Below are positions 3,580 to 51,641 of a stretch of DNA of 51,806 nucleotides, piece by piece. Made by a program: the position numbers and the translations under genes. The notes below the pieces were generated by a model. The model did not search any database, was not told the origin of the DNA, and saw only the letters and a list, made by a program, of their open reading frames with translations. The stretch is from Rikenella sp. (GTDB lineage Bacteria; Bacteroidota; Bacteroidia; Bacteroidales; Rikenellaceae), in NCBI GenBank assembly GCA_022511025.1, contig JAFLSI010000003.1, forward strand, positions 1 through 51,806, read 5' to 3'. How positions within the stretch are numbered: the stretch's first letter is position 1; every line of letters begins with the position of its first letter.

Positions 3580-5001
3580 ATGTCGATGAAAAAGGGGATG
3601 TTGCTGTTCGGAGCAGCGCTTTGCTGCTGGAGCGGTTCGACGGCGCGGGAATACCGTTCCGGACGTCCGGACGAGAGGGATCGGCTCTTCGTCTCGGAGG
3701 CGGTCGAACGGAAAATCGAAGAGGTGCAGCGGCTGCTGACGAACAAAAAATTAGCCTGGATGTTCGCGAACTGCTTTCCGAACACCTTGGAGACGACGGT
3801 TCACTATCGCCGGGATACGGTGGACGGATTGGACGATACGTTCGTCTATACGGGCGATATTCATGCCATGTGGCTGCGCGATGCGAGCGCCCAAGTGTGG
3901 CCTTACGTGCAGTTAGCCAACGAGGACGAGGCGCTGCGGCGGATGCTGGCCGGCGTGATCAACCGCCAGTTCAAGTTGATTCATATCGACCGCTATGCCA
4001 ACGCCTTCAACGACGGACCTGTCGGGGGAGAATGGATGTCCGACCTGACGGAGATGAATCCGCATGTCCACGAACGCAAGTGGGAGATCGATTCGCACTG
4101 CTATCCGATCCGGCTGGCCCACCGCTACTGGAAAGAGACGGGGGATACGTCGGTCTTCGGCCGGGTGTGGCTCGATGCGATTGCGGACATTCTGTCGACG
4201 TTCCGCGAACAGCAGCGCAAGGAGGGGTTGGGACCCTATGCGTTCATGCGCCGGACGGAACGGCAGTTGGATACCAAATGCTGCAACGGCTTCGGCAATC
4301 CGGTCCGGCCGGTCGGGTTGATCGTCTCTTCGTTCCGGCCGTCGGACGATGCCACGACATTCGACTTTTTGGTGCCCTCCAACTTCTTTGCGGTCAGTTC
4401 GCTGCGCAAAGCGGCCGAGATTCTGGAAACGGTCAACCGAAACCGGGAGTTGGCGGCCGAATGTTCGGCGCTGGCCGACGAGGTGGAGGAGGCCTTGCGA
4501 AAATATGCGGTCGTGGATCATCCGGTCTACGGCAAGATTTATGCTTACGAGGTGGACGGTTTCGGCAATGCGTTCCTGATGGACGATGCCAATGTGCCGA
4601 GTTTGCTGGCGATGCCTTATTTGGGCGATGTGGAGCGCGACGATACGGTCTATCGGAACACCCGGCGTTTCGTCTGGAGCCGGGACAACCCTTACTTTTT
4701 CAGCGGGCAGGCGGGCGAAGGGATCGGCGGCCCTCATGTCGGGTACGACATGATCTGGCCGATGAGCATCATGATGCGCGCGTTCACCTCCGACGACGAT
4801 GCCGAGATCGAACGGTGCATCGAAATGCTGCTGACGACGGATGCCGGTACGGGGTTCATGCACGAGTCGTTCCACAAGGACGATGCCTCGCGGTTTACGC
4901 GGGCGTGGTTCGCCTGGCAGAATACGCTGTTCGGCGAATTGATCCTGAAGTTGATCGGAGAGGGCAAACTCGACCTGCTCAATTCCATTCGGGTCGAATA
5001 G
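3580..5001 (+). CDS. Exo-alpha-1,6-mannosidase-like glycoside hydrolase (GH125)
   Basis: 473 aa; FANCFPNTLETTVHY, FVYTGDIHAMWLRDASAQVWPYV, GGPHVGYDMIWPMSIMMRAFTS motifs of GH125. Confidence 0.9.
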   Translation: MSMKKGMLLFGAALCCWSGSTAREYRSGRPDERDRLFVSEAVERKIEEVQRLLTNKKLAWMFANCFPNTLETTVHYRRDTVDGLDDTFVYTGDIHAMWLRDASAQVWPYVQLANEDEALRRMLAGVINRQFKLIHIDRYANAFNDGPVGGEWMSDLTEMNPHVHERKWEIDSHCYPIRLAHRYWKETGDTSVFGRVWLDAIADILSTFREQQRKEGLGPYAFMRRTERQLDTKCCNGFGNPVRPVGLIVSSFRPSDDATTFDFLVPSNFFAVSSLRKAAEILETVNRNRELAAECSALADEVEEALRKYAVVDHPVYGKIYAYEVDGFGNAFLMDDANVPSLLAMPYLGDVERDDTVYRNTRRFVWSRDNPYFFSGQAGEGIGGPHVGYDMIWPMSIMMRAFTSDDDAEIERCIEMLLTTDAGTGFMHESFHKDDASRFTRAWFAWQNTLFGELILKLIGEGKLDLLNSIRVE

Positions 5002-48824: not shown

Positions 48825-48956
48825 AGTGGAGTAAAAGTAGGATTTTTATGTTGAAATCCCACAAAAAACGTACATTTGGCTACTCAGCCCGACGAAATGT
48901 GGCAGCAATTTTCCTAATAATTATAATTTCCCAGCAATACTTCACCAAGGTGAGTG

Positions 48957-48987
48957 CTTGTTCGTGTGCGAAAATATGGTATCTTTG
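48957..48987 (+). promoter_or_regulatory. Promoter (-33 CTTG / -7 TATCTTTG) for the BspA-like gene leader
   Basis: CTTG 48957-48960, 19-nt spacer, TATCTTTG 48980-48987; no CDS start for about 340 nt downstream. Confidence 0.7.
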
Positions 48988-49330
48988 TGGTGCTGAGTGC
49001 CTCCCGGCACGCGGCAGACATATCAGAGAAAGTGTTTTCGCACGGTCCTAAGTAGGAAATGTGGTAATTTCACGACTGAAGGACGACGAACAGCACTCAT
49101 TTCTTGTTTAGATGATGACGGGCGAACGTATCTGTTGCATTCGCATACCTCATATCTATACAAGTGTGGGGTATTGCGTCGTTTATTTCAGTCAAGGTCT
49201 TACCACAACCTCCTACTTGATAAACGAAATCGACTCCACACTTTCTATTTTTTAACTTGCTGAAATTCATATAGCTACCAGGAGTCGATGGCGATTGATG
49301 TTTAACGCGATGCACAAAACAAAAGTGGCC
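48988..49330 (+). ncRNA. Candidate structured 5' leader RNA upstream of LRR lipoprotein
   Basis: Stems GTGCC-tccc-GGCAC (48997-49010), GAAAT/ATTTC (49056-49071), 11-bp AAGTGTGGGGT/ACTCCACACTT (49162-49172/49233-49243), 8-bp TCGTTTAT/ATAAACGA (49179-49186/49220-49227). Confidence 0.45.
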
Positions 49331-50983
49331 ATGAAACGACTATTTCCTATTGGGGCGATTTTGACCCTGTTGCTGGCCGTCGGTTGCAGCAAGAGCGACG
49401 ACTATTTCGACGAACCAAAGCCAGACGAGGAACCGACAGAACAGTTCGATGTACTCTGCGAGCAGATAAATAGAAATATGGCCTCGTTACAGGCATTGAT
49501 CGGCGTCATGCAGGAGGGAGATTATATCGACGAGGTAAGCCCCGTTATGCAAGGCGGTAAAGAAATCGGCCATACGATTACTTTTGAAGATAGCGATCCG
49601 ATTACCATCTATTACAGCACGGAGAACGACACGGAGGCAAATGGAGCAATGCCGGTTATCAGTGTGCGGCAGGACGAAGACGAAGTTTATTATTGGACGT
49701 TAAACGGCGCTTGGCTTCTGGAGAAAGGGAATAAAGTTCAGGTACAGTCTGCTCTGCCCCAACTGAAATTGCAGAATGGAGAGTGGTATCTATCCAATGA
49801 CGGGGAGCAAACTTGGCAAAAGTACGGAAAAGCGACCGAGGCCGATTACGATAGGACATTTCAAAGTGTAACCGAGAAGGAGGATAATGTCGATATTATT
49901 TTGTCCAACGGTTCCAAGATCACCTTGCCGAGAATAACCGCGTTGACCGTTCAGATTATGGAGCAGGACACCCTGTTGCAATTCTTGGACGATGAGACGA
50001 AAACGATCTGTTACACCATTACCGGGGGAGGTAAGAACCAGGTTGTAAAGGTTGAAATGCAGAATGACGACGGAGGTTACACGCTTCATACGACCTCGGA
50101 ATCGGCGACCGCCGGTACGGTCGATATTCAGGCAAATACTCCGACCGAAAATCGCGTGATCGTATCGGTTTCCAACAGTCGCCAAACGGTTCAGGCGAGT
50201 ATCGCTGTGGCTGGATATCCGCCTTTCGACGGACTGACCATCCGGGTAGAGACTCCGGGAACGTTGTCCCAGTTATTGAGCGAACACGACCAATCGATCC
50301 TTACCGAACTGAGAGTAATCGGTTCGATCGATGACGAGGATATTGCCACCTTGAAAGCTCTTGCGAAGCGTCTTTTACTTACGAATTTTCTTTTAATACT
50401 GGATATAGAGAATACGGATATAACCAGTCTGCCAGAAGAAGCTTTTTTTGCATGCAAGAAACTGACTGCCATTAAACTACCTAAAACTTTAACAACAATT
50501 GGAGATCGGGCATTTCATTCCTGTTCCGATTTGACGAGTATAACAATTCCGAACAGTGTTACGACGATTGGAGAGTGGGCATTTGAACTTTGTACCAACC
50601 TGACGAGTATAACAATCCCGAACAGTGTTACGACGATTAGAGAGTGGACTTTTGCTTTCTGTTCCAATTTGACGAGTATAACAATTCCGAACAGCGTTAC
50701 GACGATTGGAGACTATACATTTGCAAAGTGCACCAGCTTGACAAGTATAACAATCCCAAACAGTGTTACGACAATTGGAAGCCAGGCATTGGCTGGTTGT
50801 GATCGCCTCACACGAATCGATTGCCAACCCAACACGCCTCCACAATTAGGTAGTGAGGTATTCCAGCTAACACCAGTAGAAAATTGTGTGTTATACGTTC
50901 CGACAGGTTGTGCAGAGGCCTATCGTACCGCTGAGGGCTGGAAATCCTATACTTTCCAAGAGATCATCGAAACCAATTTCTAA
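49331..50983 (+). CDS. BspA-like leucine-rich-repeat (LRR_5) surface lipoprotein with DUF4988-like N-terminal region
   Basis: MKRLFPIGAILTLLLAVGCSKSDD lipobox; repeated LTSITIPNSVTTIGxxAFxxC; C-terminal CVLYVPTGCAEAYRTAEGWKSYTFQEI. Confidence 0.9.
   Translation: MKRLFPIGAILTLLLAVGCSKSDDYFDEPKPDEEPTEQFDVLCEQINRNMASLQALIGVMQEGDYIDEVSPVMQGGKEIGHTITFEDSDPITIYYSTENDTEANGAMPVISVRQDEDEVYYWTLNGAWLLEKGNKVQVQSALPQLKLQNGEWYLSNDGEQTWQKYGKATEADYDRTFQSVTEKEDNVDIILSNGSKITLPRITALTVQIMEQDTLLQFLDDETKTICYTITGGGKNQVVKVEMQNDDGGYTLHTTSESATAGTVDIQANTPTENRVIVSVSNSRQTVQASIAVAGYPPFDGLTIRVETPGTLSQLLSEHDQSILTELRVIGSIDDEDIATLKALAKRLLLTNFLLILDIENTDITSLPEEAFFACKKLTAIKLPKTLTTIGDRAFHSCSDLTSITIPNSVTTIGEWAFELCTNLTSITIPNSVTTIREWTFAFCSNLTSITIPNSVTTIGDYTFAKCTSLTSITIPNSVTTIGSQALAGCDRLTRIDCQPNTPPQLGSEVFQLTPVENCVLYVPTGCAEAYRTAEGWKSYTFQEIIETNF
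50492..50836 (+). repeat. Tandem 69-bp repeats encoding 23-aa LRR_5 units
   Basis: Units starting at 50492, 50561, 50630, 50699 and 50768 (last degenerate); conserved core TTGACGAGTATAACAATTCCGAACAGTGTTACGACGATTGGAGA. Confidence 0.9.
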
Positions 50984-51005: not shown

Positions 51006-51641
51006 ATGAATGAAAATCAAGATCAATCAATGAAAAACACAAAACTTTTCGCCGCTTACGAAAAAGCGATCGAGGGTCAACAGTTTATCGTAGGACGTTA
51101 CAATACGTGGATGAACTACTATGCAATTTTTGTCGGTGCACTTTTCCTCGCGCTCTATACGATCTGGCCACAACAAGATATGACAAGCGAGAAAGCGAAA
51201 ATATGGTTTCTGCCAGCTATCATTACTTTGATTGGTTGGATTGCTTCTCTGGGTTGGTACGGAGCTTTGCTCGGTTACCGAAAATGGAATGGACATTGGA
51301 TGATGGTTGTACATAAAATAGAGAAAACCATTAGCAACAAAGGGACTGAAGAAGATTTTTTCCCGTTAGTCTATGGAGATATGCCGGGATCAAACCATTC
51401 ACATGGTGCGGAGCGGTATATGCCAGGGTATCTTTCGACCCAGAAAATAACGGGGACATTTATCTTTTTTGTAGCATTGGCTTGGATTGCGGTCTTCGGG
51501 TATACGATCTACTGTTGGACTAATTGCCTATGTGCGAGTATATATTCCGGTACAATAGTCTTGATTGCAACTCTATTGATTTGGATACTCTTCCATTATC
51601 TTGGCTGTCGTGCCTACTGCTCCACCATCTCGCAAGACTAA
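51006..51641 (+). CDS. Multi-TM membrane protein, possibly RipA-family
   Basis: 211 aa with about four TM segments (YYAIFVGALFLALYTIW, PAIITLIGWIASLGWYGALLG, GTFIFFVALAWIAVFGYTIY, IVLIATLLIWILFHYLG) and GYRKWNGHWMMVVHKIE; family assignment tentative. Confidence 0.6.
   Translation: MNENQDQSMKNTKLFAAYEKAIEGQQFIVGRYNTWMNYYAIFVGALFLALYTIWPQQDMTSEKAKIWFLPAIITLIGWIASLGWYGALLGYRKWNGHWMMVVHKIEKTISNKGTEEDFFPLVYGDMPGSNHSHGAERYMPGYLSTQKITGTFIFFVALAWIAVFGYTIYCWTNCLCASIYSGTIVLIATLLIWILFHYLGCRAYCSTISQD

What the first reader, a model, noticed from the sequence alone, without database searches (positions are those of the whole stretch)
48988..49330. Unexplained ~330-nt structured leader upstream of a BspA-like LRR lipoprotein
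A good Bacteroidetes promoter (CTTG-19 nt-TATCTTTG, ending 48987) is followed by about 340 nt without a convincing CDS before the LRR lipoprotein start (49331). This stretch has several stems: GTGCC-tccc-GGCAC (48997-49010), GAAAT-gtggta-ATTTC (49056-49071), an 11-bp stem with one G-U pair (49162-49172/49233-49243), and an 8-bp stem nested inside it (TCGTTTAT/ATAAACGA, 49179-49186/49220-49227). Nested stems in an otherwise AT-rich intergenic region suggest a cis-regulatory RNA, or a mobile leader cassette tied to BspA-type surface proteins. I do not recognise it as a named riboswitch class.
Basis: partly seen in the sequence, partly recalled or inferred. Interest (0 to 1): 0.72.

Follow-up and report, generated by a model that had tools for sequence, protein, structure and literature searches.

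The report
Unlisted pseudoknotted leader RNA in Bacteroidota
The stretch before this surface-protein gene is one copy of a large, intricately folded RNA switch-like leader that sits in front of many different secreted-protein genes across gut Bacteroidales and a few other members of the Bacteroidota phylum, and that matches no catalogued RNA family we could search.

Summary
Window 48980-49330 is one of about five copies in this genome of a structured 5' leader RNA, found in 145/200 Rikenellaceae genomes and, in a more compact form, in other Bacteroidales (74/295 genomes) and a few other Bacteroidia. It has its own TAnnTTTG promoter, a variable 5' hairpin, a conserved ~200-nt core, and a stem followed by a conserved U-tract. 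After that comes a hairpin whose loop pairs back into that stem. The start codon lies 50-62 nt after the stem. They also hold in 72 distant copies found with a model that did not contain them. No Rfam family matches. It is not tied to BspA: 9/137 downstream genes are LRR_5, and most of the rest encode diverse secreted or lipoproteins. Near-identical cores occur between unrelated flanks, so the core has been copied or homogenised. Best reading: a new cis-regulatory leader class working by transcription attenuation with a mutually exclusive downstream pairing; trigger unknown. The RNA family and its cis position are shown by sequence evidence; the mechanism is inferred. There are no expression data.

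The parts
48935..48945 (+). upstream antisense segment P0 (CAATACTTCAC; CAATACCCC in other copies), complementary to 49166-49176 (two G-U pairs)
   Evidence: complementary run of 9 or more in 58/133 copies against ~7 expected; a compensated variant in L019. Whether it is transcribed is unknown
48958..48987 (+). Bacteroidota promoter, TTG ... TATCTTTG; expected TSS about 48993
   Evidence: TAnnTTTG at a like distance in 141/151 copies; TSS not measured
48997..49010 (+). P1, 5' hairpin of variable sequence
   Evidence: this region folds better than shuffles in 131/133 copies
49032..49096 (+). P2, GTGTT 49032-49036 / AGCAC 49092-49096
49045..49084 (+). P3, GTCCT 49045-49049 / AGGAC 49080-49084
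   Evidence: five of six pairs with changes on both sides
49050..49218 (+). PK4, long-range helix 49050-49056 / 49212-49218 (AAGTAGG/CCTACTT)
   Evidence: 96% of cells paired, every pair covaries
49056..49071 (+). P4 hairpin GAAAT-GTGGTA-ATTTC
49061..49206 (+). PK1, kissing-loop pairing 49061-49067 / 49200-49206 (GTGGTAA/TTACCAC)
   Evidence: 92% paired, all seven pairs covary
49074..49193 (+). PK3, long-range helix 49074-49080 / 49187-49193 (GACTGAA/TTCAGTC)
49103..49164 (+). P5, variable-length hairpin joining CTTGTTTAGAT.. with ..ATCTATACAAG
49162..49243 (+). P6, 11-bp stem 49162-49172 / 49233-49243 enclosing the 8-bp stem 49179-49186 / 49220-49227
   Evidence: 8-bp core of the stem nearly invariant in Rikenellaceae; divergent own copy L185 keeps it as GTGAGG/CCTCAC
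49242..49255 (+). conserved U-tract right after P6 (putative intrinsic terminator or pause)
   Evidence: 8.8 T in 12 nt against 3.4 expected, 122/137 copies with 8 or more
49231..49287 (+). PK2, CGACTCC 49231-49237 (P6 3' strand) / GGAGTCG 49281-49287 (loop of P7); overlaps and competes with P6
49276..49291 (+). P7, hairpin presenting GGAGTCG, of variable stem sequence
   Evidence: GGRG loop flanked by a stem of 4 bp or more in 117/126 copies, 54 with shuffled flanks
49331..50983 (+). controlled gene in this copy: BspA-like LRR_5/DUF4988 lipoprotein

Best explanation
The region is a copy of a phylum-level, previously uncatalogued cis-acting 5' leader RNA. Transcription starts at about 48993. 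The first ~250 nt fold into a compact core in which the P3/P4 domain is tied to the apical part of P6 by three stacked long-range helices (PK4, PK1, PK3). P6 plus its U-tract acts as an intrinsic terminator or pause site upstream of the gene. The upper half of P6 is mutually exclusive with PK2, in which the P6 3' strand pairs with the loop of the next hairpin (P7), just before the start codon. A signal that stabilises or destabilises the core would therefore set how much full-length or translatable mRNA is made for the downstream gene, usually a secreted or surface protein. Shown by sequence evidence: the RNA-level structure, the cis position, the U-tract, PK2 and the spread. Inferred: that P6 terminates, the direction of control, and that a ligand or protein is the signal.
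For: Homologues: 4 copies in the own genome by DNA and a fifth, divergent one by covariance model (L185), upstream of a BACON lipoprotein. 145/200 Rikenellaceae genomes match; 74/295 of the order and 8/199 of the phylum sample match the model. Structure: 40-sequence alignment 86.9% paired, covariation 0.311 against 0.153 shuffled and at most 0.112 when slid. Own-versus-swapped partner test in 137 copies: PK4 8.1 vs 4.6, PK1 7.7 vs 5.8, PK3 8.6 vs 6.5, PK2 6.5 vs 5.8, control windows flat; the same in 72 compact copies found with a model lacking these helices. RNA of this strand: 141 G-U against 52 A-C cells at variable pairs. Cis position: start codon 50-62 nt after P6 as the main peak in both groups. 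Terminator-like: U-tract 8.8/12 T in both groups. Tandem domains on one apparent transcript before one gene in L261 and L237. Regulon-like: 73/104 downstream proteins have a crude signal peptide against 200/571 other genes, p 4e-11.
Against: No RNA-seq, 3'-end or reporter data. The simple terminator scan finds nothing here because it allows loops of only 3-8 nt. P6 is near invariant in Rikenellaceae, so it gives little covariation there, and in compact copies own exceeds swapped only modestly (8.3 vs 7.4). PK2 can form only after polymerase has passed the U-tract, so it is not a simple antiterminator. No common biochemical function of the downstream genes points to a ligand. Model E-values near 1e-5 are unreliable (antisense palindromic hits).
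Confidence: 0.66

Rival explanations
1. A stand-alone trans-acting small RNA gene: transcription starts at the near promoter and always ends at P6, and its place in front of genes is incidental.
For: Own promoter and terminator-like end. Copies with a different 3' continuation (TTGAACCG...) have no gene start at the usual distance where enough sequence is held.
Against: Start codon fixed at ~55-60 nt after P6 in unrelated lineages, P7/PK2 conserved beyond the U-tract, and tandem domains without an internal promoter in front of one gene. None of these is expected of a free sRNA.
Confidence: 0.1
2. A ligand-independent processive antitermination or RNA-polymerase-modifying element (put- or EAR-like) that lets polymerase pass its own terminator and later ones.
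For: Diverse downstream genes with no common pathway; compact multi-pseudoknot core directly at a U-tract.
Against: Many downstream units look like single short genes. put and EAR resemblance is from memory only; no homology was tested.
Confidence: 0.1
3. A two-promoter switch: a far promoter starts transcription exactly at CAATACCCC, whose 5' end pairs with GGGGUAUUG of P6 and blocks the terminator, while the near promoter gives attenuated transcripts.
For: CAATA-pyrimidine motif in 51/133 copies, often 5-6 nt after a TTTG (34 of 69 motif-matched copies), complementary to P6 (run of 9 or more in 58/133 against ~7 expected). The complement is kept in divergent copies, best in L019 (shuffle p 0.0023).
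Against: About half of the copies, including many intact ones, lack the motif. Few copies are informative for covariation (own 8.4 vs swapped 8.2). The motif could be a protein-binding site next to the near -33 box.
Confidence: 0.2
4. A DNA-level mobile or recombination element (folded single strand or cruciform) whose promoter-like ends happen to drive neighbours.
For: Cores at least 85% identical with sharp edges between unrelated flanks and unrelated genes (41 pairs). Leader identity is not coupled to gene homology (0.63 vs 0.61). Restriction-modification genes follow type-B 3' ends in L004 and L068.
Against: G-U pairs outnumber A-C mismatches 141:52 (p 1e-10), which argues for RNA. Helices in the variable flanks (P1, P7/PK2) are re-established in each context. 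No transposase or target duplication was found.
Confidence: 0.08

Closest known systems
Metabolite riboswitches with transcription-terminator expression platforms (e.g. cobalamin, lysine, preQ1 classes)
   Same: Conserved pseudoknotted core in 5' leaders, U-tract after a stem that has a mutually exclusive partner, occasional tandem arrangement, several copies per genome
   Different: No ligand known, no common pathway among controlled genes, no Rfam match; the competing partner lies downstream of the U-tract
Flavo-1 RNA (RF01705) and other Bacteroidetes motifs of Weinberg et al. 2010 (Bacteroidales-1, Bacteroides-1)
   Same: Bacteroidetes-specific structured RNA motifs of unknown function (PMC2864571; PMC9723704)
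   Different: cmscan against all Rfam families gives no hit to them in the window region or in 17 distant loci
T-box and leader-peptide attenuators
   Same: Terminator-containing leaders upstream of genes
   Different: No T-box match by cmscan, no obvious leader peptide in the ORF list, and helices (not codons) are conserved
IS605/IscB-type guide RNAs and retron msr-msd
   Same: Structured, pseudoknotted, repeated RNA near variable sequence
   Different: No nuclease or reverse transcriptase as a recurrent partner among the downstream genes, no guide segment; compared from memory only

Membership tests
Structured cis-regulatory leader RNA | Conserved secondary structure with compensatory changes in homologues at independent loci | tested here: met
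Structured cis-regulatory leader RNA | Fixed position in the 5' region of downstream genes | tested here: met
   start codon mostly 50-62 nt after P6 in both groups
Structured cis-regulatory leader RNA | Changes expression of the downstream gene | not testable with these tools
   needs reporters or RNA-seq
Transcription attenuator (intrinsic terminator) | Stable stem followed by a U-tract | tested here: met
   note the long apical domain, which a simple scan with loops of 3-8 nt misses
Transcription attenuator (intrinsic terminator) | Mutually exclusive alternative pairing | tested here: met
   PK2 overlaps P6 (CTCC shared) and covaries; P0 partly
Transcription attenuator (intrinsic terminator) | RNA 3' ends at the U-tract | not testable with these tools
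   no transcript data
Riboswitch | Direct ligand binding changes structure | not testable with these tools
   needs in-line probing or similar
Any of 4227 Rfam 15 families | Covariance-model score at or above gathering | tested here: not met
BspA-specific leader | Downstream gene is a BspA/LRR_5 protein | tested here: not met
   9/137 with LRR_5
Autonomous mobile element | Mobility gene, target duplication or empty sites | tested here: inconclusive
   sharp-edged shared cores; no recurrent mobility gene among first downstream genes; empty sites not examined

The most novel reading that the evidence does not exclude
A new, widely spread class of ligand- or factor-sensing leader RNA of Bacteroidota that places many unrelated secreted and surface-protein genes under one signal. 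Its conserved core is copied or homogenised between loci, while hypervariable flanking hairpins are re-matched to it through PK2.
Probability: 0.4. Interest if true: 0.86.

Novelty: new variant of a known kind. Interest (0 to 1): 0.74.

Why it matters
Bacteroidales dominate the human gut, and their surface lipoproteins (BspA, DUF4988, BACON, OMPs) mediate much of their contact with host and diet, yet few RNA regulators beyond known riboswitches have been described there. A single RNA class with about 2-8 detected copies per genome in front of such genes would define a new post-transcriptional regulon. It would also give a concrete orphan-riboswitch target, with a predicted architecture and named isolates that carry it (Bacteroides xylanisolvens XB1A, B. 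acidifaciens DSM 15896, B. heparinolyticus DSM 23917).

Tried and rejected
Rfam at gathering and at E up to 10: only the tRNA at the window edge, and chance hits. Plasmids: no match. Phage records: two unannotated, unverified faecal contigs carry copies, not pursued as phage evidence. Viral contig scan failed twice for technical reasons. A second strand of upstream antisense pairing (GAGTGTT with AACACTC) was considered; I dropped it because variants did not covary and GTTG is probably the near -33 box. RNA-guided targeting of CAATACCCC by the RNA was considered; no effector gene and no guide-like variation. Literature searches and passages of PMC8040213, PMC9723704, PMC2864571 and PMC7366714 showed no description of this RNA. 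The library is open-access only, so absence is not proof, and supplementary lists of candidate RNAs were not searchable.

Full report
OBSERVATION. The 337 nt from the expected TSS to the start codon fold far better than shuffles (-110 kcal/mol, z -5.6). No Rfam family matches, even at E 10, apart from chance.

HOMOLOGUES. A DNA search of the own genome finds three more copies. A covariance model built from 40 copies (A2, R1) adds a fifth, divergent one (L185), whose P6 is GTGAGG/CCTCAC and which precedes a BACON-domain lipoprotein. Of 200 Rikenellaceae genomes 145 have at least one copy, and a pattern scan named 80 loci, mostly Alistipes but also Bacteroides acidifaciens, B. xylanisolvens XB1A, B. 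heparinolyticus, Phocaeicola, Limisoma and Cryptobacteroides. In the wider order 74/295 genomes match and in a phylum sample 8/199, the own genome included in both. Many of these are a compact ~160-nt form (P5 shortened, P6 stem GCGTGG/CCACGC). Model E-values around 1e-5 are not trustworthy by themselves, because palindromic antisense hits reach them. The compact copies are supported by helices that were not in the model (below).

STRUCTURE. Besides P1-P6 there are three long-range helices, nested among themselves but crossing P2, P3 and P4. PK4 joins the segment between P3 and P4 to the segment after the conserved CC in the P6 apex. PK1 joins the P4 loop to the P6 apex. PK3 joins the segment between P4 and P3' to the 5' part of the P6 apex. 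In the window they are 7 bp each and exact. In 40 sequences the whole structure is 86.9% paired, with covariation twice the shuffled value and nearly three times the best slid value; PK4 and PK1 covary at every pair. In an own-versus-swapped test on 137 copies, partners from the same copy pair much better than partners from other copies (PK4 8.1 vs 4.6; PK1 7.7 vs 5.8; PK3 8.6 vs 6.5), while two control window pairs are flat. The 72 compact copies give the same result. G-U pairs exceed A-C mismatches 141:52 at variable pairs, so the structure is selected in the RNA of this strand.

THE 3' SIDE. P6 is followed by a conserved U-rich tract (8.8 of 12 nt against 3.4-3.6 expected, both groups). Then comes hairpin P7, whose loop (GGAGTCG here) is complementary to the P6 3' strand (CGACTCC). 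This pairing, PK2, covaries (6.5 vs 5.8, z 6.7 and 5.9 in the two groups), and the GGRG loop is flanked by a stem in 117/126 copies against 54 with shuffled flanks. PK2 shares CTCC with the upper half of P6, so the two exclude each other there; in the window the free-energy minimum contains PK2 rather than P6. The start codon usually follows P6 by 50-62 nt, in Rikenellaceae and in the compact group. This places the RNA in cis as a leader. Two related loci (L261, L237) carry two domains in tandem with no recognisable promoter between them, in front of one gene.

THE 5' SIDE. TAnnTTTG is found at a like distance in 141/151 copies, and a hairpin of ever-changing sequence follows it (131/133 more stable than shuffles). 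In about half of the copies an upstream segment CAATACCCC (CAATACTTCAC here) is complementary to the P6 5' strand; it often lies 5-6 nt after a TTTG. A complementary run of 9 or more occurs in 58/133 against about 7 expected, and the divergent copy L019 keeps the complement with changed letters (p 0.0023). I read this as a possible second start site that yields a P6-blocking 5' end. It is a lead, not a result.

GENES AND SPREAD. Downstream proteins are diverse. LRR_5 occurs in 9 and DUF4988 in 9 of 137; 73 of 104 close ones have a crude signal peptide against 200 of 571 other genes nearby (p 4e-11). Leader similarity is hardly related to gene homology (0.63 vs 0.61). In 41 pairs the core is at least 85% identical from 8 nt before AAAGTG to about 9 nt after P6, while both flanks, including P1 and P7, look unrelated. 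Within such near-identical cores the three letters next to CTCC, which pair with the P7 loop, are among the most variable positions. So the core is copied or homogenised between loci and then re-matched to its local P7. Which process does this is open.

MECHANISM. Most likely: transcription attenuation (P6 plus U-tract), with PK2 and in some copies P0 as competing pairings, governed by the folding of the core. The signal is unknown. Structure, cis position, U-tract and PK2 are shown by sequence comparison; termination, direction of control and signal are inference. A riboswitch is plausible but untested.

NOVELTY. Not in Rfam 15 and not found in the open-access papers searched. I class it as a new variant of a known kind: a new leader-RNA class.

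Noticed in passing
L003, L004, L020, L022, L027, L068, L120, L122: right after the P6 3' strand: Eight copies lack the U-tract and P7 and continue with a shared sequence (TTGAACCGAATAAC..TATCAAATTA..TAATTTGATACC). Type I restriction-modification genes follow in L004 and L068, and a DUF6088-like gene in L022. It looks as if the hairpin end served as an integration site for defence islands.
   Followed up: partly
L261 (G268), L237 (G373), L227 (G488): Tandem copies: two domains ~60 nt apart without an internal promoter in L261/L237, and two copies each with its own promoter in L227.
   Followed up: partly
L179 (MT836914.1) 4260-4453, L180 (MT838511.1) 1852-2050: Two unannotated 'Bacteriophage sp.' faecal contigs carry full copies. 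They may be bacterial contamination or real phage carriage.
   Followed up: no
window 51006-51641: The gene after the LRR lipoprotein encodes an 8xMP-family membrane protein (PF24838).
   Followed up: no
L102 and L130: Same upstream sequence and 97% identical leader core but different downstream genes, as if the gene behind a fixed leader had been exchanged.
   Followed up: partly
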